64,000 bases of DNA from Propionibacteriaceae bacterium (GTDB lineage: Bacteria; Actinomycetota; Actinomycetes; Propionibacteriales; Propionibacteriaceae): positions 1 to 64,000 of the forward strand of contig JAISAO010000013.1 of assembly GCA_031266665.1 (NCBI GenBank). Reading direction: 5' to 3'. Numbering within the stretch: position 1 is the first letter of the stretch; each line of letters starts with the position of its first letter. This document shows positions 36,936-47,376 of this stretch, in pieces. The position numbers were made by a program, and so were the translations under genes. A model generated the notes under the pieces. The model worked only from the letters and a program-made list of their open reading frames with translations, had not been told where the DNA came from and made no database searches.

Positions 36936-37544
36936 GTGCCGGCCGGACGCCCCCCCTCGGGACCCCCGCCGAAGCCGGGCCGGGCCGCTCACGCCGGTAG
37001 CCCCGGCCGTGAGCGGCGGCGCAGCCCGACATCGGCGGCCGGGGGCGCCCGGCCGGTGGTCAAACCGGCGTCGGCCCCGCCGCCGGCGAAGGGCCGACGG
37101 CGGGGATTGGGGCTGACCCGGGCGTTGACCCTGATAGCCGTGCTGGCGATCTTGTCCCTGTCCTACGCCCGCAGCCTGACGGTCTACCTGTCGCAACAAC
37201 GTGACATCGCGGCCGTCCAGGCCGCCAACGACGCCCGCCGGGCCGAGATCAGCCGACTGGAGGACGAGGCGGCGCGCTGGTCCGACCCGGATTACGTCCG
37301 TGCCCAGGCCCGGGCCCGCCTGGGCTGGGTCTTGCCGGGCGAGATCGGCTACCGCGTCATCACCGCCGACGGGACCATCCTGGGGGTCGAGCCGGTGCCG
37401 TCGGCCCAGACCCAGGCCGAGGCCGGCGGCGCCTGGTACGACCAGTTGTGGTCGTCCATCAAGTCGGCCGACCAGCCCTTCAGCGCCGAGTCCGATCAGG
37501 ACGCCACTGCCCCGTCTCCCGGCGCCGCCGAGACTCCCGGCTGA
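36936..37544 (+). CDS. FtsB/DivIC-type septum formation protein
   Basis: Predicted cell-division protein of the FtsB/DivIC family, 202 residues. It has a basic, Pro/Ala-rich cytoplasmic N-terminus (about 60 residues) and one transmembrane helix (LTLIAVLAILSLSYARSLTV, near 63-82). A short coiled coil follows (RDIAAVQAANDARRAEISRL, then EDEAARW), then the conserved DPDYVRAQARARLGWVLPGE. In the divisome such proteins bridge FtsL and FtsQ outside the membrane. The GTG start lies 3 bases after the eno stop. The DUF501 gene overlaps its stop (TGATG). Confidence 0.92.
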   Translation: MPAGRPPSGPPPKPGRAAHAGSPGRERRRSPTSAAGGARPVVKPASAPPPAKGRRRGLGLTRALTLIAVLAILSLSYARSLTVYLSQQRDIAAVQAANDARRAEISRLEDEAARWSDPDYVRAQARARLGWVLPGEIGYRVITADGTILGVEPVPSAQTQAEAGGAWYDQLWSSIKSADQPFSAESDQDATAPSPGAAETPG

Positions 37545-38182
37545 TGCCGCCGGCCGATTCGACCACGGATTGGGCGGGGGATCCGACCACGGATTGGACG
37601 ATCACTCCGACCGCCGACTCGCCCGCCGCCCCAACCACCGACTCGCCCGCTGCCCCAACCGCCGACTGGACGGCGGCCGACCGGGCCGTGGTCGAGGCCC
37701 AGTTGGGACGGCCGCCCCGGGGGGCGGTGGCGGTCGCCTGGCGCTGTCCTTGCGGCCGGCCGGGGGTGGTGGCGACGGCGCCGCTGCTGGAGGACGGCCG
37801 GCCCTTCCCGACCACTTTCTATCTGACCTGCCCTAGAGCCGTGCGGCTGGTCTCCCAGCTGGAGTCCGAGGGCGCCATGGCCGTCTGGAACGACCGTCTG
37901 ACGGCGGACCCCGACTTGGCCGGCGCCTATCGCCTGGCCCACGCCGACTATCTGGCCCGGCGACAGGCCCTGGCCCGCCGGCTGGGCCAAGACGACCGGC
38001 CGCTGGGCCAGGTCTCGGCCGGCGGGATGCCCGAGCGGGTGAAGTGTCTGCACGCCCTGGCGGGCCACGCCTTGGCGGCCGGCCCGGGGATCAACCCGGT
38101 GGGTGACGCGACCCTGGAGCGACTGGGCCCCTTCTGGCGCGGCCCCTGCCAGCCGCCCGTCCAGGCAGCCGTTTCGGCGTGA
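37544..38182 (+). CDS. DUF501-family protein
   Basis: 212-residue member of DUF501, a conserved actinobacterial family of unknown function normally encoded between ftsB and ppx. Family features: VEAQLGRPPRGAVAVAWRCP, CGRPGVVATAPLLEDGRPFP, TFYLTCPRAVRLVSQLES, HADYLARR, and MPERVKCLHALAGHALAAGP with NPVGD near the end. The Cys/His pattern (WRCPCG, TCPR, KCLH) looks metal-binding, which is inference. The first 40 residues are repeats of TTDW and SPAAPT steps encoded by short in-frame duplications. The usual next gene, ppx, is displaced 6 kb away and inverted. Confidence 0.92.
   Translation: MPPADSTTDWAGDPTTDWTITPTADSPAAPTTDSPAAPTADWTAADRAVVEAQLGRPPRGAVAVAWRCPCGRPGVVATAPLLEDGRPFPTTFYLTCPRAVRLVSQLESEGAMAVWNDRLTADPDLAGAYRLAHADYLARRQALARRLGQDDRPLGQVSAGGMPERVKCLHALAGHALAAGPGINPVGDATLERLGPFWRGPCQPPVQAAVSA
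37558..37675. repeat. In-frame short repeats in DUF501 5' end
   Basis: GACCACGGATTGG occurs twice near 37560-37600, and CCGACTCGCCCGC with GCCCCAACC recurs in the following 60 bases. They encode a repetitive Thr/Asp/Pro/Ala head that the family does not normally have. Confidence 0.65.
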
Positions 38183-38287
38183 CAGCCGCAGCCGACTCAA
38201 ACCTTTACCAGGCTATCGGCCAGAGGGATGGCCAGTCTTAGTAAATTAACTGCGTGAGTATGATGAACTCATACGAAAGGATGGAAT

Positions 38288-38581
38288 ATGACAAGCATCG
38301 TCAGAGATTCGCTGGTCCAGGTGCGCGTTGACCGGGAGACGAAACGGAACGCCGACGCCCTGTTCACCGACCTCGGCCTGGACACGCCGACCGCCATCCG
38401 CGTCTTCCTGCGCCAAGCCATCGAGGGGCGCGGCTTCCCCTTCGAGATTCGCCAACAGCCACGCTACAACCCGACGACCGAGGCGGCCATCGCGGAGGGC
38501 GACGCCATCGCCGAGGGTCGGCTGGAGGCCCCGGCCTACCGCTCGTGGAGCGACTTCGAAGCCTCGCTGAGCGACGATTAG
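38288..38581 (+). CDS. RelB/DinJ-family antitoxin
   Basis: 97-residue antitoxin with the DinJ ribbon-helix-helix N-terminus: VQVRVDRETKRNADALFTDL and GLDTPTAIRVFLRQAIEGRG with FPFEI. The C-terminal part (EGRLEAPAYRSWSDFEASLS) should wrap the toxin. ATG at 38288 has AAAGGATGG upstream. The matching YafQ-like toxin gene is not downstream on the same strand. It lies convergently on the minus strand with only 4 bases between the two stops, which is atypical. Confidence 0.9.
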   Translation: MTSIVRDSLVQVRVDRETKRNADALFTDLGLDTPTAIRVFLRQAIEGRGFPFEIRQQPRYNPTTEAAIAEGDAIAEGRLEAPAYRSWSDFEASLSDD

Positions 38582-38585
38582 GCGC

Positions 38586-38858
38586 TCAGAGGCTGAATAG
38601 GTCGGCGTGTGTGCCGGTGCGGTCGGCTACCAGTTGATCTTCTACCAGGTGGTAGACGAACAACCAATCGGGCGCGATGTGGCATTCACGTTTCCCGATG
38701 TAGGGACCCGACAAGGCGTGATCCTGATATCGCGCGGGCAAGGCCTCTTCCCGAAGCAGTCGGTCGACCACGTCGCCGAGTCGGCTGAGGTCGAGACCGC
38801 GCTTCCGCGCCAGTTTCGAGTCGCGGCGGAACTGGGACGTTGACACGAGTGTGAGCAC
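38586..38858 (-). CDS. YafQ-family mRNA-interferase toxin (convergent to its antitoxin)
   Basis: 90-residue RelE/YafQ-type toxin, predicted to cleave mRNA on the ribosome. Conserved features: TSQFRRDSKLARKRGLDLSR, LGDVVDRLLREEALPARYQD, HALSGPYIGKRECHIAPDWL, FVYHLVEDQLVADRTGTHAD and LFSL. The catalytic-type His and Asp residues are present, so it appears intact. GTG at 38858 is the start used; a GTG nine bases downstream is possible. It lies tail to tail with the DinJ-type antitoxin gene, unlike the usual antitoxin-toxin operon. Confidence 0.88.
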   Translation of the reverse strand: MLTLVSTSQFRRDSKLARKRGLDLSRLGDVVDRLLREEALPARYQDHALSGPYIGKRECHIAPDWLFVYHLVEDQLVADRTGTHADLFSL

Positions 38859-38913
38859 TGGACGGCCTCTCCGGTTGCCTACCAGGCCGAGAGGTGGACA
38901 CTATCAGCCTGGG

Positions 38914-38986
38914 TGTCCCCGATCGGATTCGAACCGACACTGGGGCGGGTTTAAGCCGCCTGCCTCTGCCGTTGGGCTACGGGGAC
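38914..38986 (-). tRNA. tRNA, anticodon UAA (Leu, UUA codon), class I shape
   Basis: 73-base cloverleaf on the minus strand. Acceptor arms GTCCCCG and CGGGGAC with discriminator A, D arm GCCCAACGGCAGAGGC, and anticodon stem GGCGG/CCGCC with loop CTTAAAC giving anticodon UAA. The variable region is short (CCAGT), and the T arm is GTCGG-TTCGAAT-CCGAT. CCA is not encoded. The decoded codon UUA is leucine, yet bacterial tRNA-Leu normally has a long class II variable arm. It lies between the toxin gene and the second sugar ABC transporter. Confidence 0.85.
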
Positions 38987-39070
38987 GGGTTGGACCCAGA
39001 CGCCTGGGCCGCGCCCTTGAGAATATCGGGCGTTGAGCGGACATGACCCCGCCTCGCCGCGTCGGCGGAA

Positions 39071-39130
39071 CTCAGCCCCTGATCCACCGCTTCTCGACTA
39101 CACCGATCCTCGACCACTGAGCGACCGTGG
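39071..39130. repeat. Dispersed 3'-end repeat, copy 4 (degenerate)
   Basis: Plus strand CTCAGCCCCTGATCCACCG is followed by CTTCTCGACTAC, an inserted ACCGATCCTCGACC and ACTGAGCGACCGTGGACG. It is related to the copies at 4413, 23739 and 27891, but no gene stop codon is visible within it. Confidence 0.65.
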
Positions 39131-39186
39131 ACGCCCGCGCCCCTCGTGAAACGCCTTGATCGTGGCTGACGGTGGAGAATGGGCCG

Positions 39187-40107
39187 GTGAGACAGACCAG
39201 GCGAGTCGGCGGGCGGCGGGCGGCGCGGCGGCGGACGGCGTTGGCCTACGGCTTGTTGGCGCCTAGTCTGGTCGGCATCGTGGTCTGCCTGGTGGTGCCG
39301 ATCATCATCGTGGCCTGGCTCAGCTTCCACCGCTGGGACCTGCTCGGCCCGATCAGCTACGTCGGCTGGGACAACTGGTCCCGGCTGCTGAGCGATCCGA
39401 CGCTGGGCAACTCGCTGCTCGTCACCGCCGCCTTCGCCTTGATCGTCATCCCGGTCCAGACCGCCCTGGGGCTGTTGTTGGCCGTGTTGTTGCACCGCGG
39501 TCTGCCGGGCTCCGGGCTGCTGCGGGCGATCTACGTCCTGCCCTGGGTCTGCGCGCCGCTGGCCCTGGGCATCGTCTGGCGTTGGATCCTGGCCCCCACC
39601 TCGGGCGCCCTCAACGCCCTGCTCGGCACCTCCGTGGCTTGGCTGACCGAACCCGCGCTGGCCCTGCCGGCGGTGGCGCTGGTGTCGATCTGGTCCCAGG
39701 TGGGCTACGTCACTTTGTTCTTCCTGGCCGGCTTGGCGGTCATCCCGCCCAGCGTGGTCGAGGCCGCCCGCCTCGACGGGGCCTCCGGGCCACGCCTGTT
39801 ATGGCACATCACCTTGCCCCTGCTGCGTCCGACCCTGTTCTTCGTCTTGCTGACGTCGACCATCACGGCGTTCCAGACCTTCGACACGGTCTACGCCCTG
39901 ACCCAGGGCGGGCCGTCCAGTTTGAAGGACGGGGTGGCGCTGGGCCGCACCGATGTCATCGCCCGGCGGATCTACGCCGACGCCTTCGTCAACTTCGACC
40001 TCGGCCGGGCGGCCACGGCGGCGCTGGTCCTGTTCGCCGTCCTGGTCGTGGTCTCGCTGGCACAGCAACTCTACTTCCGACGTCGGATCACTTATGACCT
40101 CAGCTGA
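39187..40107 (+). CDS. Sugar ABC transporter permease (MalF type), second system
   Basis: Membrane subunit of a second carbohydrate importer, 306 residues. A basic N-terminus (RQTRRVGGRRAARRR) precedes six predicted helices. The EAA loop is PSVVEAARLDGASGPRLL with WHITLPLLRP. The GTG at 39187 is preferred, with GGTGGAG about 9 bases upstream; GTG at 39172 would add five residues. The next permease gene overlaps its 3' end by 14 bases. No ATPase is encoded nearby. It differs clearly from the xylan-operon permease. Confidence 0.9.
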   Translation: MRQTRRVGGRRAARRRTALAYGLLAPSLVGIVVCLVVPIIIVAWLSFHRWDLLGPISYVGWDNWSRLLSDPTLGNSLLVTAAFALIVIPVQTALGLLLAVLLHRGLPGSGLLRAIYVLPWVCAPLALGIVWRWILAPTSGALNALLGTSVAWLTEPALALPAVALVSIWSQVGYVTLFFLAGLAVIPPSVVEAARLDGASGPRLLWHITLPLLRPTLFFVLLTSTITAFQTFDTVYALTQGGPSSLKDGVALGRTDVIARRIYADAFVNFDLGRAATAALVLFAVLVVVSLAQQLYFRRRITYDLS

Positions 40108-41158
40108 ACCCCGGCCCCCGGTAGGCCCACATCATCCGACCCCGCCCTCGGACAGCCCCCCGCCCCCGGTCGATCACCCACGCCCGGCCGCGCCTCGGCT
40201 GACAGACACGCCCCCGCCTTCGGGCGGGACTCAATCCTCGGCCGAGACCCGCCCCGCCGCTTCCCGACCCGGGAGCGCCTCCCGACCACCGCTTGAGCCC
40301 CGACCGTCCGCCCCGCCCCGCCGCCCCCGGCCTCGCCGCTGGGCCTCAGTGGTGGCCACCTACGCCGTGCTGTTGGCCGCCGCCGGAGCGACCCTGGGAC
40401 CGTTGGCCCTCAGTTTTATGACCTCGTTCAAGACGCCGCGCCAGTTCGCCACCCAGTCGGCGCTGACGGCGCCCGACCCCTGGACGGGGGAGAACTACCG
40501 CGCCCTGCTGGGCGGCCAGACGGTCGGCTTCGGCCACGCCCTGCTGGTGACGACCGGCGTCGTCGTGGTCGTCCTGATCGGCCAGTTGACAACCTCGGTG
40601 ATGGCGGCCTTCGCCTTCGCCCGACTCGACTTCCCCGGCCGCGACCTATTGTTCTGGGCCTACGTCGCCACCCTCATGGTCCCGCCGGTGGTGACCGTGG
40701 TGCCTCTGTACCTGATGGTCTCGCAAGTCGGGTTGCGTAACACCTTCTGGGGCCTGGTGCTGCCCTATATCTTCGGCTCGCCCTACGCCATCTTCTTGTT
40801 GCGCCAGTATTTCCGGGGTATCCCGCAAGAATTGGTGGACGCCGCCCGGGTCGACGGGGCGGGGCCGGGGACGGTGCTGCTGCGGATCATCTTGCCGCTG
40901 TCTCGCCCCATCATGGCGACGCTCGGCGTCATCACCGTGGTGACGCACTGGAACAACTTCCTCTGGCCGCTGATCATCACCAACGGGTCTGCCTGGCAAG
41001 TCGTGACCACGGCCACCGCCAACCTGCAGGGCCGCTACAACGGCAACTGGACGCTGGTGATGGCGGCCACCACCTTGGCCATGGCCCCGCTGATGGCCGT
41101 CTTCGTCGTCTTCAACAAACAGATCGTCTCCTCCATCCAGATCACCGGCTTCCGCTGA
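40094..41158 (+). CDS. Sugar ABC transporter permease (MalG type), second system
   Basis: 354 residues. The first 90 or so residues are an unusually long Pro/Ser/Thr/Arg-rich cytoplasmic head (TPPSDSPPPPVDHPRP). The six-helix permease follows, with EAA loop QELVDAARVDGAGPGTVLLR and IILPLSRP, and the C-terminal TTLAMAPLMAVFVVFNKQIV. The ATG at 40094 lies within the previous gene. The matching substrate-binding protein is 387 bases downstream behind its own promoter region, the reverse of the usual order. Confidence 0.9.
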   Translation: MTSAEPRPPVGPHHPTPPSDSPPPPVDHPRPAAPRLTDTPPPSGGTQSSAETRPAASRPGSASRPPLEPRPSAPPRRPRPRRWASVVATYAVLLAAAGATLGPLALSFMTSFKTPRQFATQSALTAPDPWTGENYRALLGGQTVGFGHALLVTTGVVVVVLIGQLTTSVMAAFAFARLDFPGRDLLFWAYVATLMVPPVVTVVPLYLMVSQVGLRNTFWGLVLPYIFGSPYAIFLLRQYFRGIPQELVDAARVDGAGPGTVLLRIILPLSRPIMATLGVITVVTHWNNFLWPLIITNGSAWQVVTTATANLQGRYNGNWTLVMAATTLAMAPLMAVFVVFNKQIVSSIQITGFR

Positions 41159-41194
41159 CCCTAGGCGTGGCTGTGGGCCGCAGCGGTGGGGCGT

Positions 41195-41246
41195 GGAACG
41201 TGGTCCGGGACGTGGGATGGGGAACGTGGTCCAGGGCGTGAGATGG
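41195..41246. repeat. 26-bp tandem duplication
   Basis: GGAACGTGGTCC followed by GGGACGTGGGATGG (41195-41220) is repeated as GGAACGTGGTCC with AGGGCGTGAGATGG (41221-41246). The copies are directly adjacent and differ at three positions. Confidence 0.85.
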
Positions 41247-41305
41247 GTAAACGAGGTATCGTGAAGCGGGGCGCCGCTTTACCCGGCATCATTCGGAGAC
41301 AGATG

Positions 41306-41335
41306 TTGGATACGTGTGTATACAGGTGCTACGCT
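41306..41335 (+). promoter_or_regulatory. Promoter with palindromic operator, second sugar ABC system
   Basis: TTGGAT (41306-41311) and TACGCT (41330-41335) are spaced by 18 bases and fit -35/-10 elements. The palindrome TGTATACA (41317-41324) lies exactly in the spacer, a good place for a repressor. Confidence 0.5.
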
Positions 41336-41428
41336 GATCCCCGGCCCGTGGCCCCGTCTCATCACCGGTTGGCGCCAACCCGACCCGCCGCCGATCAGCG
41401 ACAATGAGTCTTATCCACGGGTGGGCCG

Positions 41429-41456
41429 AGATCTCGGATCGGAGCCGGGATGGCGT
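41429..41456. repeat. REP-like palindrome, diverged copy
   Basis: GAGATCTCGGATCGGAGCCG then GGATGGCG: the palindromic core is still recognisable but several stem positions are changed. Confidence 0.6.
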
Positions 41457-41545
41457 GAAATGGCGTCATCGCGGATTCGACCGGCCATCTGACCGCACAC
41501 CAGCCTCGATGGTCGGACGCCCCGCCCGACCGGAATGGAGTCACC

Positions 41546-42883
41546 ATGTCCCACCGCCCTAATCTCGCTCTGGCCGCACTGGCCGTCGTCGCCGGACTCG
41601 CTCTGACGGGTTGCGGCGGCTCGCCAGCCCCGGCGCCGGACACCTCGGACGCCCCCGTCGAGTTGACCTTCCGCACCTGGGACGAGACCGCCGCGGCGGC
41701 CTATGAGACCTCCTTCGCCGACTTCACCGCCGCCCACCCCGGCATCACGGTCAAGACCGAGGTGGTCGGCTGGTCGGACTATTTCGCCAAGGTCCGCACG
41801 GATGTGGCCGGAAACTCGGCCCCCGACCTGTATTGGCTCAACAATTCCAACCTCCAGGCCTACGCCCAGAGCGGCAAACTGGTCGACATCAGCGCCGCCC
41901 TGGCCGACGCCGTGGCCGGCTGGGACCAGCCCGTGGTCCAACAGTTCACGCTGGACGGCACCCTCTGGGGCGTGCCCCAGACCTCGGACGGCGGCATCGC
42001 CGTCTATTACAACGCCGACCTGCTGGCCGCCGCCGGCCTGACCGAGGCCGACATCGCGGACCTGGCCTGGAGCCCGGACGGCGGCGCCGACTCGCTGTTG
42101 GCGACGGCCCGGAAGCTGACCCTGGACGCCGCCGGCCACAGCGCCGACCAGCCCGACTTCGACCCGGCCACGACGGTCCAATGGGGCTACAACGCCGCCC
42201 AGGACCTCCAGGCCATCTACCTGCCCTTCATCGGCTCCAACGGCGGTGCCTTCCAATCAGGCGACGCCTTCACTCTGACCGACCCCAAGACGGTGGCCGC
42301 CTTCGGCTACATCGTCGACCTGATCAACCAGCAACATGTGGCCCCGTCGGCGGCCGACACCAACGCCAACGGCGACTTCAGCCGCGACCAGTTCCTCCAG
42401 GGCAAGATCGGGCTGTTCCAGTCGGGCCTGTACAACCTGGCCCAGGTGGCCGACAACGCCGATTTTGAATGGGGCGTCGTCGGCCTGCCCCAGGGCCCGG
42501 CCGGGGCGGTCAGCGTCAGCAACGGCATCGCCGTGGTGGGCAACGCCCAGTCGGCCCATCCGGACGAGCTGGCCCAGGTGTTGGCCTGGCTGGGCTCCGA
42601 GGCCGGCAACACCGCCATCGGCGCCAGCGGGGCCAACCTGCCCGCCGTCACCGCCGCCCAACAGACCTACCGCGACTACTGGTCCAACCGCCAGGTCGAT
42701 TTGACGCCTTTCTTCACGGTGCTGGACTCCGGGGTGACCATCCCGGCGCCGACAGGGGCCAAGTTCAACGACGCCTACGCCGCCTACAAGCCGATCCTGG
42801 ACGAGGTCTTCCTGGGCCGCGTGCCGGTGGCCGAGGGCCTGGAGGCCGCCAACACCGCCGCCAACAGCGCCGCCAACGCCTGA
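41546..42883 (+). CDS. Sugar ABC transporter substrate-binding lipoprotein, second system
   Basis: Extracellular solute-binding lipoprotein of 445 residues. Lipobox LALTGC gives a lipidated Cys23, followed by a Pro/Ala/Asp linker. The family 1 fold shows as VELTFRTWDETAAAAYETSF, SAPDLYWLNNSNLQAYAQSG, WGVPQTSDGGIAVYYNADLL and FSRDQFLQGKIGLFQSG. ATG at 41546 has GGAATGGAG upstream. It pairs with the two permeases just upstream. The ligand is unknown. Its own promoter suggests it may be expressed at a higher level than the permeases. Confidence 0.92.
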   Translation: MSHRPNLALAALAVVAGLALTGCGGSPAPAPDTSDAPVELTFRTWDETAAAAYETSFADFTAAHPGITVKTEVVGWSDYFAKVRTDVAGNSAPDLYWLNNSNLQAYAQSGKLVDISAALADAVAGWDQPVVQQFTLDGTLWGVPQTSDGGIAVYYNADLLAAAGLTEADIADLAWSPDGGADSLLATARKLTLDAAGHSADQPDFDPATTVQWGYNAAQDLQAIYLPFIGSNGGAFQSGDAFTLTDPKTVAAFGYIVDLINQQHVAPSAADTNANGDFSRDQFLQGKIGLFQSGLYNLAQVADNADFEWGVVGLPQGPAGAVSVSNGIAVVGNAQSAHPDELAQVLAWLGSEAGNTAIGASGANLPAVTAAQQTYRDYWSNRQVDLTPFFTVLDSGVTIPAPTGAKFNDAYAAYKPILDEVFLGRVPVAEGLEAANTAANSAANA

Positions 42884-42939
42884 ACCCAGATCCGGCGCCT
42901 TTCGAGCGCTGGTGGCGTGGCTATCGGCGTCCCGGCCGG

Positions 42940-43608
42940 TCAGGCGGTCGCTCCCCCGGCGGCGCGGTAGTCACGGGGATCGAGACAGGACAAGAAGTCA
43001 CTCTCGTCCAGGTAGGTACACCAGACAGGTGCCCGACCGTGCGGCGAGAGCCGGCCGCGCCCTGACCAGTTGCAGACCTCGACGATGGGCGGATCATCCA
43101 TGTCGAGGGCCAATTCCAGGGCGGGCGCCAGATCGGTGTCGCGCGAGGCCAGGATGAGAACGTCGGCCGCGCGCAAGATCGCCGCGCGGACGAAGCTCAC
43201 GGCCAGGAGGACATCAATGCCTTTCTCCTGCGCCCTGCCGGCCGGCCAGTCGTGGGGATAGCGCAACGGGCGTCCCCGCACACGCACTCGACGGTCGCGA
43301 GACCACTCGGACGCGCTGGCCTGCCAACGGGCATAGGAACGGGGCTCTCTGGACGAGCCGGGCTGCCCCCGGAAGACCTCCACACTCGTGACCCGCCCAG
43401 GCCGGTGGCACTCGGCCCGGCGGGAGTCGATGACATCAGCGAGCCTCCCCGGGTGCAGCAGGGCGCTCCGCCGGGTCTCCGGCCGCCGGAACTGCCCTTT
43501 TCCGACCAGATAGACGTTCTGATAATCAACGAACAGGGCGACCGAGGGGCTGTTGGAAGACGAGAAAACCCCGCCAGTCCCGGAGGACGGCGGGGAGTAT
43601 GGCGTCAA
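42940..43608 (-). CDS. NYN/PIN-like RNase domain protein
   Basis: Predicted NYN-domain nuclease, about 222 residues. Catalytic-type acidic motifs are VALFVDYQNVYLVGKG at the start of the domain, EKGIDVLLAVSFVRAAIL in the middle, and DVLILASRDTDLAPALELA near the end. The last carries the metal-binding Asp pair typical of NYN/PIN folds. The start is uncertain. No ATG fits well; TTG at 43608 is chosen because GAGGGTGGGG precedes it by 5 bases. A start upstream at 43695 would overlap the divergent promoter. It is transcribed divergently from a Phd-RelE toxin-antitoxin pair. An RNA target is inferred. Confidence 0.75.
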   Translation of the reverse strand: MTPYSPPSSGTGGVFSSSNSPSVALFVDYQNVYLVGKGQFRRPETRRSALLHPGRLADVIDSRRAECHRPGRVTSVEVFRGQPGSSREPRSYARWQASASEWSRDRRVRVRGRPLRYPHDWPAGRAQEKGIDVLLAVSFVRAAILRAADVLILASRDTDLAPALELALDMDDPPIVEVCNWSGRGRLSPHGRAPVWCTYLDESDFLSCLDPRDYRAAGGATA

Positions 43609-43720
43609 TGGTACCCCACCCTCGGAAGATTGGCCGAAATCATGGCCCCACACTATCGAGGGGCTACGACAAAACGACCAGTCCACGCCCGCCAAAATGT
43701 CCTATTTGTACCATTGGGAC
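43609..43720. promoter_or_regulatory. Divergent control region, NYN nuclease / Phd-RelE
   Basis: AT-richer 112-base spacer. The inverted repeat TGTCC...GGACA at 43698-43721 encloses TATTTGTACCATTG just before the antitoxin ATG and is a candidate operator for autoregulation by the Phd-type antitoxin. Confidence 0.45.
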
Positions 43721-43978
43721 ATGAGTACCACACCTCTTGAAGCGGCTCGCCACGCCCGCGACCACTTCTCGGAGATCATCGAACGGGACGAGCCGACCAT
43801 CATCACCCGCCACGGCCGCGCCATCGCCGCCGTCGTCCCGATCAACGACTGGTGGCGCTACCAAGAGTTGGAGGAGAACGAACTCCGCCGTGTCGTGGCC
43901 GAGCGCCGGGCCGAGGCCGACCATCCCGGCTACAGCCTCGAACAGGTGTTGCAGGAGACCCTGGCCCGCGATGAGTAA
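43721..43978 (+). CDS. Phd/YefM-family antitoxin
   Basis: 85-residue antitoxin. The N-terminal Phd fold is visible as PLEAARHARDHFSEIIERDE, PTIITRHGRAIAAVVPINDW with WRYQELEENELRR, and the C-terminal half carries the toxin-neutralising tail. ATG at 43721 sits immediately after a candidate operator. The RelE toxin gene begins 8 bases before its stop, the normal coupled arrangement for such pairs. Confidence 0.92.
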   Translation: MSTTPLEAARHARDHFSEIIERDEPTIITRHGRAIAAVVPINDWWRYQELEENELRRVVAERRAEADHPGYSLEQVLQETLARDE

Positions 43979-44249
43979 GTGGCGCGCTCGGTTCAAACCG
44001 TCGGCCAGGCAAGACCTGCGCGCCCTTCCCCGACACACGGCGCTGCGCCTTCTGAGCCGGCTGACCGACCTGGAGGCCGACCCCTACAGCTTGGGCACGA
44101 CGGAACTGATGGGAGCAGCGGGCTACCGGCGGTTGCGCGGCGGCTCATACCGTGTCGTCTACACCCTCGACCATGGCGAGTTGATCGTCTGGGTGGTCTC
44201 GGTCGGCCACCGTTCCACCACCTACCGCGACCAGACCGAGCGCTATTGA
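43971..44249 (+). CDS. RelE/ParE-family toxin
   Basis: 92-residue toxin, predicted ribosome-dependent mRNA interferase. Motifs: ARFKPSARQDLRALPRHTAL, RLLSRLTDLEADPYSLGT, AAGYRRLRGGSYRVVYTLDH and VVSVGHRSTTYRD. The LRGGSYRVVY strand is the family hallmark, and basic residues needed for RNA cleavage are present. ATG at 43971 overlaps the antitoxin gene. Its 3' end overlaps the convergent ppx gene by 7 bases, so it abuts the core genome directly. Confidence 0.92.
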   Translation: MSKWRARFKPSARQDLRALPRHTALRLLSRLTDLEADPYSLGTTELMGAAGYRRLRGGSYRVVYTLDHGELIVWVVSVGHRSTTYRDQTERY

Positions 44250-45181
44250 AGAGTGTCCAGGGCGGCGCCGTCGAGGATGTCAGTCTCGCGCGCCGTCATC
44301 GGGCGGCCCAGGCGGCGGGCCAACTCGGCGGCGATCAAGACGCCGCCGGCTATGACCTCGGCCCGCAGCGGCGGCAAGATTGGGTACTGGCGGCCGACCT
44401 CGGCCGCCGTCAAGGTGAGCAGGTGGTCGGAAAGGGCGGCGATGGCGGCCGGGGCGACCATGGAATTGTGCACCACCGCGGGGTCGTAGACCGTCAGACC
44501 GGCCGCCAGGGCGGCGATCGAGGTGCTGGTGCCGGCCACCCCGATCCAGGTCACGGGAGCCGCCGTGTCCACCCGCTCCCTAAGGCGGGCCAAAGGGCCG
44601 CCGGGGCGGTCCAAGCAGTTGGCCACCAAGGCCCGGGCGGCCGTGATCTGGGCCGGGGTCGGGGGATCGTCGCTCAGGCAGCGCTCGCGCAGGCGGACCG
44701 AGCCGATGTCCAGCGAGCGGGCGGCCTCGACCCGGCCAAAGTGGTCGCCCAAGACGATCTCGGTCGAGCCACCACCGATGTCGGACACCAGCACCGGCCC
44801 CGGCGCCGTCGGCCCGCCGGCCAGGGCGCCGAGGAAGGACAGGCGGGCCTCCTGCTCCCCCGAGACTATTTCCGGGGCCACCCCCAGGCGCTGGCGCATA
44901 CCGTCCAAGAACTCATCCCGGTTGGCCACGTCGCGCGCCGCCGAGGTGGCCAGACAGCGCGTCCGGTCCACCTCGTGGTCGGCGATCAGGCGGGCGAAGT
45001 CGTCAGCGGCGGCGAAGACCCGGGCCAGAGCCTCCGGGTGGAAACGTCGGTTGGCGTCGACCCCTTGCCCCAGCCGGACGTAGCGCAACTCCCGGACCAG
45101 CGTCACCAGCCCGTCGTCCCCCGGCTCGGCCACCAGCAGACGGATGGTATTGGTGCCGCAATCGACCACGGCGACTGACAT
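44243..45181 (-). CDS. Exopolyphosphatase (Ppx/GppA family)
   Basis: Hydrolyses polyphosphate and/or pppGpp. 312 residues, the short actinobacterial form. Phosphate 1 motif VAVVDCGTNTIRLLVAE, then TSAARDVANRDEFL, VSGEQEARLSF, VSDIGGGSTEIVLG (phosphate 2) and VAGTSTSIAALA. ATG at 45181 has GGGAGGGAG upstream. Its normal place is just after DUF501 in the eno-ftsB-DUF501-ppx order. Here it is 6 kb away, inverted, with toxin-antitoxin, tRNA and transporter genes between. The last 7 bases overlap the RelE gene tail. Confidence 0.95.
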   Translation of the reverse strand: MSVAVVDCGTNTIRLLVAEPGDDGLVTLVRELRYVRLGQGVDANRRFHPEALARVFAAADDFARLIADHEVDRTRCLATSAARDVANRDEFLDGMRQRLGVAPEIVSGEQEARLSFLGALAGGPTAPGPVLVSDIGGGSTEIVLGDHFGRVEAARSLDIGSVRLRERCLSDDPPTPAQITAARALVANCLDRPGGPLARLRERVDTAAPVTWIGVAGTSTSIAALAAGLTVYDPAVVHNSMVAPAAIAALSDHLLTLTAAEVGRQYPILPPLRAEVIAGGVLIAAELARRLGRPMTARETDILDGAALDTLQ

Positions 45182-45576
45182 GCCGCTCCCTCCCGGCGGC
45201 CCGGCCGGCCGCCGCCCCCCATTCTGCGCCATCGGCGGGGGCAAGCCGGCTCACCGGGCGGACACGGCCTCAACCCGATCCACAACCCGCCCGGACTCAT
45301 CGGCTCCCCCTCCGAATTTGGCGGACACGGCCTCAACCCGATCCACAACCCCGCCACCGGCCAGGTGATCGGCCAAGGCATTTGCACGATGCCGCTGGGC
45401 CGGACAGGCCGCACCCGCAAGCCCGGCATGCCAGGGTCTGCCGGCCAAGCCGGCTCGGCCAGGCGGGGACGGCGCTGCCCGCTCAGCCCTGTCCGGTCGG
45501 CTGGGCTCGCTCAGTGAGGCCCAATCGGCCGCGCCGGGGCGAATACATCTCCGCGCGCAACACACCCGAAAAGGCC
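45182..45576. other. Intergenic region with 32-bp direct repeats
   Basis: 395 bases between two minus-strand genes. It carries the direct-repeat pair described at 45256-45351. No gene found; short open frames are Arg/Pro/Ala-rich shadows. No clear terminator for the lipoprotein gene was seen. Confidence 0.5.
45256..45351. repeat. 32-bp direct repeat pair
   Basis: GGCGGACACGGCCTCAACCC then GATCCACAACCC occurs at 45258-45289 and 45320-45351, 62 bases apart. The spacing resembles that of the 31090 pair (64), although the sequence is different. Confidence 0.85.
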
Positions 45577-47376
45577 TCAGGGAGTCGTTTCCGTGATCAG
45601 CGCCGGGTCGAAGGCGGGCTCGAAATCGTCGCCCTCTCGCGGATTGTCAAGATTGTCCCCGAGCGCGGCCACGAACTCACGGGACAGCGGCTCGACAACT
45701 GATTCGCCATCGCCAAAATATTCGACTGTGCCGAGGTAGTTGTAGCCCTTGGTTCCGCACCAAATGCCCCGATTGGCGAATCGCACAGAATACTCCGGCA
45801 GGCCGCGCAGGCCTTCATAATAGTCCGGGAGCCAGAGCGCGACCACGTATTCGCCCGCCGCCATATCCGCTGGCAATGCCACCGAAACGTCGATCCTGCT
45901 CTCACCGCTCAGCCAGGTGCGCGCGTCGATATCCGTCAATTCGACGTCGTAGCGATTGACTCCGTCGTCGAACACCACGAAAACGGGCCGAGCTCTGACG
46001 ATGCCCGCGTATCCGTCATTGAACACGGTCATTTTGAGGCTGAAGGCGTCCCCCCTCTCTGCCGTGGTGGTGAACTCGGCGTGATCGAGCCGGAGCCTGT
46101 AGCCGAGTTTTCGATCAAGACGCCCGTAAGCGCTTTCGGCCGGATCATCGCCGGAGGCGGGCAGCATAGCTTCCCTCCACAGTTCCAGATGCCTGGCCTC
46201 CCAGGAGCGATTGATCGCGGTGAGGTTTCTGGCGGCGGCCTCGCTCAGCGCCAATTGTGCTCCCGCGTCGACCAGCCTCGTGTTCAACGACGGATCGGTC
46301 ATACCCAGGTCGCGGTCGTCTTCGGGATACCATGCCGTCTCTCCATACTGCGGAGAATCGCCTCCGAACGATGTCCCCATCCGAGCCGAGAACGCGGCCA
46401 CGTCTTCGACCGGATCATATTCTTTGTGATCATCCCAATACGGGCGGAATGGATCATCCCAGCCTCCGCCCCGCGTGTGGCTCCTGACATATGACGCGAA
46501 CGAGTCGTCATGCTGCCCCAACCGGTCGAGTTGGACCTGCGTCAGACCTCCAGAGCCTGGCGGCGGATCGTTGGCCAACGCCGCTATCTCCATCAGGTTC
46601 TCGGTGTAGCGAATGAGAACGGGGACGGTGTCGGGGGTGTGTTCCAGCAACTGCTTCACGAGCCGATAGCGTTGCGCGCCCTGCGCTGGAGAGTCTATTG
46701 CTGTGGTGGGCTCGTGGTCCTTGTATTCGGGACGGTCCTCGCGCTCGTGGGACACGCCCGCGACCATGACATGATCGTCGTCGTTGTGCCATTCGCCCCA
46801 GGGTCCGAGTATCCCCGCGCACAGAGCGGCCACGATATCGGCGTTCTCGGTGACGACCTCACCGATTTGCTCGATGTGTCGCAGATAGTTCTCCTCGACC
46901 ACCAGCGGGGTCCAGGCGTCCGAGTACACCATTCGCAAGACGATCTTCATTCCCGCCTCCCGCACCACCCCCAAGGCTCGCGACAATTCGCTCAGCCAGG
47001 ACTGCGGCAATTCACGAGAGTCGATGTATTCATTGAGGTGGACCGGCGCGTCAAGCATTGTGACCCCGTCTCTCCGTAATTCGCGCAGCGCTTCAAGGTA
47101 GCCGCCACCGAAGCGCCACGAGTCGTATTCGGGGTCCGTGAGCCACTCGGCATAATCGTCATCGAAGTCTTGCCCGTGAAGATAGTCCAGTCCGGTGAAG
47201 TTCTCGAAATAGCCCCGCTCAGGGTTGGCGAGCACGCTTGTGAAATCCGGCGTGTAGGCGAATGACTGCGTCCTCGGCGCGTCCGGCCCGGCGCAGGCCA
47301 TCACCGCCCACAACAGCGCGACCGTCGCGAAACCCACAATGCGCCTGCCGCTTCGCTTACGGCGACGCGCTCTCAC
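45577..47376 (-). CDS. DUF4874/DUF4832 lipoprotein, putative carbohydrate-active enzyme
   Basis: Secreted lipoprotein of 599 residues. A basic N-terminus, a hydrophobic segment and the lipobox AVMAC give Cys28. The N-terminal DUF4874 region has VLANPERGYFENFTG, YLEALRELRRDGVTMLDA, KIVLRMVYSDAW and ILGPWGEWHNDDD, a TIM-barrel-like pattern with acidic residues. A C-terminal DUF4832 beta-domain includes KMTVFNDGYAGIVRARPV. These domains are thought to be glycan-related, but no activity is established. GC content and third-position bias are visibly lower than in the neighbours, so recent transfer is likely. GTG at 47376 follows AGGAGA very closely, and a GTG 13 codons in is an alternative. Confidence 0.85.
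   Translation of the reverse strand: MRARRRKRSGRRIVGFATVALLWAVMACAGPDAPRTQSFAYTPDFTSVLANPERGYFENFTGLDYLHGQDFDDDYAEWLTDPEYDSWRFGGGYLEALRELRRDGVTMLDAPVHLNEYIDSRELPQSWLSELSRALGVVREAGMKIVLRMVYSDAWTPLVVEENYLRHIEQIGEVVTENADIVAALCAGILGPWGEWHNDDDHVMVAGVSHEREDRPEYKDHEPTTAIDSPAQGAQRYRLVKQLLEHTPDTVPVLIRYTENLMEIAALANDPPPGSGGLTQVQLDRLGQHDDSFASYVRSHTRGGGWDDPFRPYWDDHKEYDPVEDVAAFSARMGTSFGGDSPQYGETAWYPEDDRDLGMTDPSLNTRLVDAGAQLALSEAAARNLTAINRSWEARHLELWREAMLPASGDDPAESAYGRLDRKLGYRLRLDHAEFTTTAERGDAFSLKMTVFNDGYAGIVRARPVFVVFDDGVNRYDVELTDIDARTWLSGESRIDVSVALPADMAAGEYVVALWLPDYYEGLRGLPEYSVRFANRGIWCGTKGYNYLGTVEYFGDGESVVEPLSREFVAALGDNLDNPREGDDFEPAFDPALITETTP

What the first reader, a model, noticed from the sequence alone, without database searches (positions are those of the whole stretch)
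38288..38858. DinJ-type antitoxin and YafQ-type toxin encoded tail to tail
A complete RelB/DinJ antitoxin (plus strand) is followed after only 4 bases by an intact YafQ-like toxin on the opposite strand. Known pairs of these families are co-directional operons in which the antitoxin precedes the toxin. Here mRNAs would be antisense at their 3' ends, so convergent transcription or dsRNA formation could replace translational coupling. Sequence shows both frames and catalytic-type residues. Altered regulation is inference. It may also be an inversion relic or a mismatched pair.
Basis: partly seen in the sequence, partly recalled or inferred. Interest (0 to 1): 0.8.

Follow-up and report, generated by a model that had tools for sequence, protein, structure and literature searches.

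The report
Tail-to-tail DinJ–YafQ toxin–antitoxin cassette
A bacterial poison gene and its antidote gene, which normally sit one behind the other in a shared operon, are here encoded end to end on opposite strands, and the same reversed pair was found in three related bacteria at unrelated chromosomal sites, so it looks like an inherited, working arrangement rather than a one-off accident.

Summary
A RelB/DinJ antitoxin (38288-38581, +) and a YafQ toxin (38586-38858, -) lie tail to tail, 4 nt apart; the toxin keeps the active-site residues. It is not a private inversion relic: the same convergent pair occurs in three other genomes of the family (two genera in all), each at a different site, with 1-6 nt between stop codons. 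One blastn match (69% over 571 nt) runs through the junction between the window and the other-genus copy; flanks do not match. In a concatenated tree the four pairs are one side of a branch (89/73); single-gene trees leave this open. Of 135 distinct YafQ places, 4 are convergent, 119 have the antitoxin upstream co-directionally, 12 have none recognised. Best reading: a DinJ-YafQ pair flipped once, since inherited and moved as a ~0.6 kb convergent cassette, with protein-level neutralisation and separate transcription. That the antitoxin mRNA is also antisense to the toxin is possible but untested; the antisense-controlled RelBE2 of M. tuberculosis ('type IIb') is the nearest precedent found. 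Ten paper searches turned up no description of a convergent type II pair in what I opened.

The parts
38288..38581 (+). RelB/DinJ-family antitoxin gene, 97 aa
   Evidence: PF04221, TIGR02384 above cut-off; searching 198 family genomes with the L024 antitoxin, the four best matches are the four convergent antitoxins
38586..38858 (-). YafQ-family toxin gene, 90 aa, GTG start
   Evidence: predicted fold pLDDT 95.3, best PDB matches E. coli YafQ (4mmj, 4q2u) and H. pylori toxins such as 4ltt
38582..38585 (.). 4-nt gap between the two stop codons (4, 4, 1 and 6 nt in the four convergent pairs)
38560..38594 (.). Inverted repeat straddling both stop codons; possible two-way terminator, no T-run
   Evidence: z -2.2 (+ strand) and -2.0 (- strand) for 60 nt; L006 has a hairpin just inside the toxin end (z -0.3 to -2.5 by stretch and strand); L045 and L024 z -0.7 to 1.8, no signal; so not a conserved part
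38258..38274 (.). Palindrome GTATGA-N5-TCATAC upstream of the antitoxin, operator candidate
   Evidence: GTAT-N(7-12)-ATAY seen upstream of the antitoxin in 3 of 4 convergent pairs and in 0 of 4 toxin upstream regions; motif picked after looking, no chance estimate made
38277..38281 (+). Antitoxin ribosome-binding site AAGGA, 6 nt before ATG
38867..38873 (-). Toxin ribosome-binding site GGAGAGG, separate from the antitoxin
   Evidence: sequence; GGAG matched
38912..38986 (-). tRNA-Leu(TAA), 53 nt upstream of the toxin on the same strand; possible source of toxin transcription in this genome only

Best explanation
This is a DinJ-YafQ-type protein toxin-antitoxin pair in a convergent layout that is old and inherited. 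Shown: both genes are intact and under purifying selection; the tail-to-tail pair is homologous across its junction in two genera; it sits at four unrelated sites. Inferred: it descends and moves as one cassette of about 0.6 kb; one ancestral inversion of the toxin gene next to its antitoxin gave this layout; the antitoxin binds and blocks the toxin as DinJ does YafQ; each gene has its own transcription and translation start, the antitoxin being autorepressed at a palindrome in front of it and the toxin transcribed separately and weakly (in this genome perhaps by read-through from tRNA-Leu). The balance of the two proteins would then be set by separate promoters, and by read-through across the short junction, rather than by one operon.
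For: Convergent pair in window, L006 (G113, another genus), L010/L045 (G015) and L024 (G001). A blastn match of 69.0% over 571 nt, E 7e-54, runs through the junction between window and L006 and ends near the module edges. Concatenated tree of 36 pairs: the four are one side of a branch, 89/73, in 87% of 200 bootstrap trees; sub-pairs 99/96 and 100/97. Four different sites: DUF501/tRNA-Leu (window), a class-II aldolase gene (L006), a tRNA cluster and a Crp-like regulator (L045), a phosphopantetheinyl transferase and a FabA-like gene (L024). Purifying selection: dN/dS 0.13-0.30 in 8 of 12 comparisons, dS saturated in the other 4. Active-site residues invariant in all four toxins. Only one YafQ found in the genome.
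Against: Single-gene trees do not recover the four as one group (AU p 0.41 antitoxin, 0.28 toxin: not rejected, not shown), and the toxin's highest identity there is to a co-directional relative (L039, 61%); a first tree on trimmed segments needed 4 (antitoxin) and 3 (toxin) changes of layout. No promoter match on either strand, no operator motif in front of the toxins, and toxin ribosome-binding sites vary (none matched in L045). Toxicity, binding and neutralisation are untested. Sampling is thin: four pairs, all from one family, all in assemblies of 50-390 contigs.
Confidence: 0.72

Rival explanations
1. Antisense-coupled hybrid: transcription from the antitoxin promoter runs through the toxin gene, so the antitoxin mRNA both makes the protein antidote and acts as antisense RNA that destroys or blocks toxin mRNA, type I and type II control in one transcript.
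For: Only 1-6 nt between the stop codons in all four pairs and no terminator-like site on the + strand of the window region. Precedent: relBE2-asrelE2 of M. tuberculosis, where an antisense RNA covers relE2 and RNase III processes the duplex (PMC9325379, abstract and passages seen).
Against: No RNA data. In the window and L006 a hairpin at or near the junction could end transcription. The two weak terminator-like sites found lie on the - strand inside the antitoxin gene, where they would shorten the toxin transcript (0.5 expected by chance). Close packing may simply reflect compact genomes. The antisense RNA over mazEF is reported to stimulate, not inhibit (PMC8749433, abstract).
Confidence: 0.3
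2. Inversion relic or decaying pair: the window pair lies at the edge of a local rearrangement and is a broken operon on its way out.
For: In 10 of 15 relatives' loci a tRNA-Leu(TAA) lies downstream of DUF501 on the same strand (no tRNA in the fetched stretch in the other 5), and in L173 ppx lies between them; in the window ppx (44243-45244) and tRNA-Leu both point the other way, so the pair sits at a rearrangement edge.
Against: The other three convergent pairs are at unrelated sites, and L006 matches through the junction; both frames are open and under purifying selection.
Confidence: 0.1
3. Mismatched neighbours: an orphan antitoxin and an orphan toxin from different systems that merely ended up side by side.
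For: The genome holds six other RelB-like loci, four of them above the family cut-off; antitoxin and toxin single-gene trees differ in their nearest rows.
Against: The same two sub-families pair in the same layout four times; combining the genes raises support, as expected for a shared history.
Confidence: 0.07
4. Repeated independent inversions of co-directional pairs in this family, perhaps because the layout is easily reached or favoured.
For: Single-gene trees need 2 changes of layout rather than 1, and 4 and 3 on trimmed segments.
Against: A junction-spanning DNA match between two genera; 1 change in the concatenated tree, 0 of 500 shuffles as low.
Confidence: 0.12

Closest known systems
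DinJ-YafQ (E. coli; also Lactobacillus, Vibrio), type II toxin-antitoxin
   Same: Both protein families, toxin fold and active-site residues, small adjacent genes, palindrome before the antitoxin gene
   Different: The known system is one operon with dinJ upstream of yafQ and a palindrome at its promoter (PMC6529426, passages seen); here the genes converge on opposite strands
M. tuberculosis relBE2-asrelE2 ('type IIb')
   Same: RelBE-family pair with transcription facing the toxin gene from the far side (PMC9325379, abstract and passages seen)
   Different: There relB2-relE2 is a normal bicistron and the antisense RNA is a third, non-coding element; here the facing transcript would be the antitoxin mRNA itself, and no RNA has been measured
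Type I systems with converging transcripts (fst/RNAII, bsrG/SR4)
   Same: Toxin and antidote transcribed towards each other with overlapping 3' ends (PMC3874152, passages seen)
   Different: Their antidote is an RNA, not a protein; the toxins are small peptides (last point recalled)
Excludon / overlapping 3' UTRs of convergent genes
   Same: Convergent genes without a terminator between them make overlapping transcripts (PMC7154746, passages seen)
   Different: A general concept; no convergent type II pair appears in the passages seen
HigBA-type reversed-order type II pairs
   Same: Departure from antitoxin-first order (PMC4963859, passages seen)
   Different: Still co-directional operons with toxin first (co-directional: recalled)

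Membership tests
DinJ-YafQ type II toxin-antitoxin | Toxin of the YafQ family | tested here: met
   PF15738 100.4 bits against cut-off 30; TIGR00053 below its own cut-off, 69.4 against 87.25; fold matches YafQ
DinJ-YafQ type II toxin-antitoxin | Antitoxin of the RelB/DinJ family | tested here: met
   TIGR02384 60.2 bits against 45.65; PF04221 35 against 22.4
DinJ-YafQ type II toxin-antitoxin | Catalytic residues of YafQ | tested here: met
   H47, H60, D64, W65, R80, H84, F88 identical to E. coli YafQ in the alignment and invariant in the four convergent toxins; which of them are catalytic is partly recalled
DinJ-YafQ type II toxin-antitoxin | Co-directional operon, antitoxin first | tested here: not met
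   Opposite strands, tail to tail; filed as a variant, not a typical member
DinJ-YafQ type II toxin-antitoxin | Palindromic operator at the promoter | tested here: inconclusive
   GTATGA-N5-TCATAC at 38258-38274; motif upstream of 3 of 4 antitoxins, 0 of 4 toxins, no chance estimate; no promoter match
DinJ-YafQ type II toxin-antitoxin | Protein antitoxin binds and neutralises the toxin | not testable with these tools
Type IIb (antisense RNA-coupled type II) | Antisense RNA against the toxin mRNA acts with the protein antitoxin | not testable with these tools
   Layout would permit it; no RNA data

The most novel reading that the evidence does not exclude
A lineage of type II toxin-antitoxin cassettes in which convergence is itself the control: the antitoxin mRNA, read through the toxin gene, is at once messenger for the protein antidote and antisense RNA against the toxin, a fused type I/type II system kept through movement between sites.
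Probability: 0.27. Interest if true: 0.8.

Novelty: new variant of a known kind. Interest (0 to 1): 0.56.

Why it matters
Type II systems are described, and commonly searched for (recalled), as co-directional operons, and coupling of antitoxin and toxin expression within one mRNA is held to be central to their control. An inherited convergent pair suggests that the operon is not required, gives a natural test of what the operon contributes, and suggests that surveys which require co-direction miss real systems.

Tried and rejected
A conserved terminator at the junction: hairpins in the window and L006, no signal in L045 and L024; rejected as a shared part. Hidden ribosome-binding site in the toxin leader: fold z-scores of the four toxin leaders from -1.1 to 1.0, no signal; the site was less accessible than the antitoxin's in 3 of 4 pairs and equal in one; inconclusive. 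Sigma-70-type promoter scan of 38150-39180: none on either strand (other promoter types are not covered). Known RNA family: only the tRNA. Operator motif in front of the toxin: 0 of 4. A further convergent member outside the family: the antitoxin alignment gave 18 of 391 genomes at order level, all 18 of one family, and 1 of 394 (the window itself) at class level, both samples drawn from larger groups; YafQ in 396 genomes of the phylum gave 34 with a match, and of its 30 fetched loci none but the window's own is convergent in the census; viral contigs gave no relative of the antitoxin alignment; plasmids gave 14 records under 60% identity, layout not inspected. Plasmid and phage YafQ hits (1027 and 16 records) were not inspected for layout, so convergent pairs there are not excluded. 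An inversion at the antitoxin/toxin junction in the window alone was considered because the region is rearranged, and rejected on the junction-spanning match to L006; no long, closely matching inverted repeat was listed in 37900-46500 (25 longest of 131 shown, the longest 39 nt at 72%). A model of the antitoxin alone was weak (pLDDT 83.5, pTM 0.48) and was not searched.

Full report
OBSERVATION. The window holds a 97-aa RelB/DinJ antitoxin at 38288-38581 (+) and a 90-aa YafQ toxin at 38586-38858 (-), with 4 nt between their stop codons. Both pass the Pfam cut-off and one NCBIfam cut-off each; the narrower NCBIfam model TIGR00053 for YafQ is matched below its cut-off (69.4 against 87.25 bits). 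The toxin aligns with E. coli YafQ 4ml2 over residues 7-88, and H47, H60, D64, W65, R80, H84 and F88 are identical there. Its predicted structure (pLDDT 95.3) is closest to YafQ structures and to H. pylori relatives (query TM-score 0.88-0.96 in ranks 1-9, all with E at or below 1.2e-9).

SURROUNDINGS. The antitoxin follows DUF501 (37544-38182), which follows DivIC; enolase lies before that (name recalled from the sequence). A tRNA-Leu(TAA) lies 53 nt upstream of the toxin on the toxin's strand. Of 19 genomes searched in the genus, 16 hold DUF501, the window's included. Of the 15 other loci, 10 showed a tRNA-Leu(TAA) in the fetched stretch, each downstream of DUF501 on its strand; 5 showed no tRNA. 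In L173, the one read in full, ppx follows DUF501 directly and the tRNA follows ppx. In the window ppx is at 44243-45244 on the minus strand and the tRNA is also reversed. The region has therefore been rearranged and the pair sits at its left edge. This made a local inversion a serious alternative.

THE LAYOUT IS CONSERVED. The toxin was sought in 196 related genomes; 19 had a match, 25 matches in all. Of these 25, 4 have a RelB/DinJ gene tail to tail with the toxin, 17 have it co-directional upstream, and 4 had no antitoxin detected at that step. The distances between stop codons are 4, 4, 1 and 6 nt. The neighbours differ: DUF501 and tRNA-Leu; a class-II fructose-bisphosphate aldolase (the other side of L006 is close to the contig end and was not identified); a tRNA cluster (Val, Val, Cys, Gly) and, about 1.1 kb off, a Crp-like regulator; a phosphopantetheinyl transferase and a FabA-like gene.

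ONE ORIGIN, MOVED AS A UNIT. A single blastn alignment, 69.0% over 571 nt, E 7e-54, joins the window to L006 from 24 nt inside the antitoxin gene, through the junction, to 16 nt beyond the toxin start; nothing more matches in the 150 nt of flank given on each side. L045 and L024 align over the antitoxin to just past the junction (67.8% over 298 nt); the other four comparisons give shorter, broken matches. In a tree of 36 antitoxin+toxin pairs the four convergent pairs are one side of a branch, support 89/73, 87% of 200 bootstrap trees, 0 of 500 label shuffles as low; the inner pairs window+L006 and L010+L024 have 99/96 and 100/97. Against this, the single-gene trees do not unite the four (2 changes each; AU p 0.41 and 0.28, so one group is not rejected but not shown), and a first pair of trees on trimmed segments needed 4 and 3 changes. 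Both genes show purifying selection: dN/dS 0.13-0.30 in 8 of 12 comparisons, the other 4 saturated.

HOW RARE. All 217 records held (window and 216 loci) hold 172 toxin places; taken once per distinct last 180 nt of the toxin frame they are 135: 4 convergent, 119 with a recognised antitoxin upstream on the same strand, 12 without a recognised antitoxin, none divergent and none toxin-first. Of those 12, 8 have a small open frame upstream on the same strand, 3 lie at a contig edge and 1 has neither. Antitoxins were recognised by two profiles that I built from these loci, so a convergent antitoxin of another family would be missed. Plasmid and phage hits are not in this census. The antitoxin profile found matches in 18 of 391 genomes of the order, all in one family, and in 1 of 394 of the class, the window itself.

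PARTNERS ELSEWHERE. One YafQ was found in the genome, and seven RelB-like places, five above the cut-off. Of the six others, none has a YafQ in its locus; one (L036) has a downstream co-directional frame that looks MazF-like by eye (not searched). So no co-directional partner was found for either gene, in a genome that is 94% complete.

HOW IT PROBABLY WORKS. Shown: intact, selected genes in a conserved convergent layout. Inferred from the families (established knowledge of DinJ-YafQ, recalled): the toxin is a ribosome-dependent mRNA-cutting enzyme and the antitoxin wraps and blocks it. Inferred from sequence: separate starts, AAGGA before the antitoxin and GGAGAGG before the toxin; a palindrome GTATGA-N5-TCATAC before the antitoxin, with a similar GTAT-N-ATAY motif in 3 of 4 pairs and in no toxin upstream region (no chance estimate). 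The antitoxin would be autoregulated and the toxin made separately. With so little between the genes and no terminator-like site found on the plus strand, the antitoxin transcript may run into the toxin gene and act as antisense; the window and L006 have a hairpin at or near the junction that could stop it, and two weak terminator-like sites lie on the minus strand inside the antitoxin gene. I could not decide this without RNA data.

WHAT IS KNOWN. DinJ-YafQ is described as an operon with dinJ upstream and a palindrome at the promoter (PMC6529426, passages seen). An antisense RNA to relE2 with RNase III processing is reported for M. tuberculosis RelBE2 and called type IIb (PMC9325379, abstract and passages seen); an antisense RNA that instead stimulates mazEF is reported in PMC8749433 (abstract and outline seen); antisense transcripts over type II loci are noted in Synechocystis (PMC4963859, passages seen). 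Passages of PMC7584586, PMC11980606, PMC5082802, PMC6843646, PMC4243447, PMC8230891, PMC8191103, PMC8630535 and PMC12795458 held nothing on a convergent type II pair. Ten searches of the paper library listed no paper whose title or abstract start describes one; most listed papers were seen only as listings, and the library lacks most subscription papers.

VERDICT. A real, conserved new layout of a known kind of system. It is not a membership claim for the classic operon, since co-direction was tested and not met; the protein families are met. The mechanism beyond protein neutralisation is open.

Noticed in passing
window 43724-43978 and 43971-44249, +: A second, ordinary co-directional toxin-antitoxin pair (Phd/YefM antitoxin, ParE-family toxin, overlapping by 8 nt) in the same rearranged region, tail to tail with ppx.
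   Followed up: partly
window 38182-45244: Local rearrangement relative to 10 genus relatives: tRNA-Leu(TAA) is reversed relative to DUF501, and so is ppx relative to L173; between them lie an ABC-transporter permease gene (PF00528) with its neighbours, an NYN-domain gene and the second toxin-antitoxin pair.
   Followed up: partly
window 42940-43695, -: NYN-domain protein (PIN-like nuclease fold, recalled) next to the second toxin-antitoxin pair.
   Followed up: no
L003, L004, L005: RelB-like genes of the same genome with no toxin recognised by eye among the adjacent frames, possible orphan antitoxins (not searched against family libraries).
   Followed up: no
L015: A co-directional antitoxin whose N-terminal half closely resembles the convergent antitoxins but whose C-terminal part differs, a possible swap of the toxin-binding part (by eye).
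   Followed up: no
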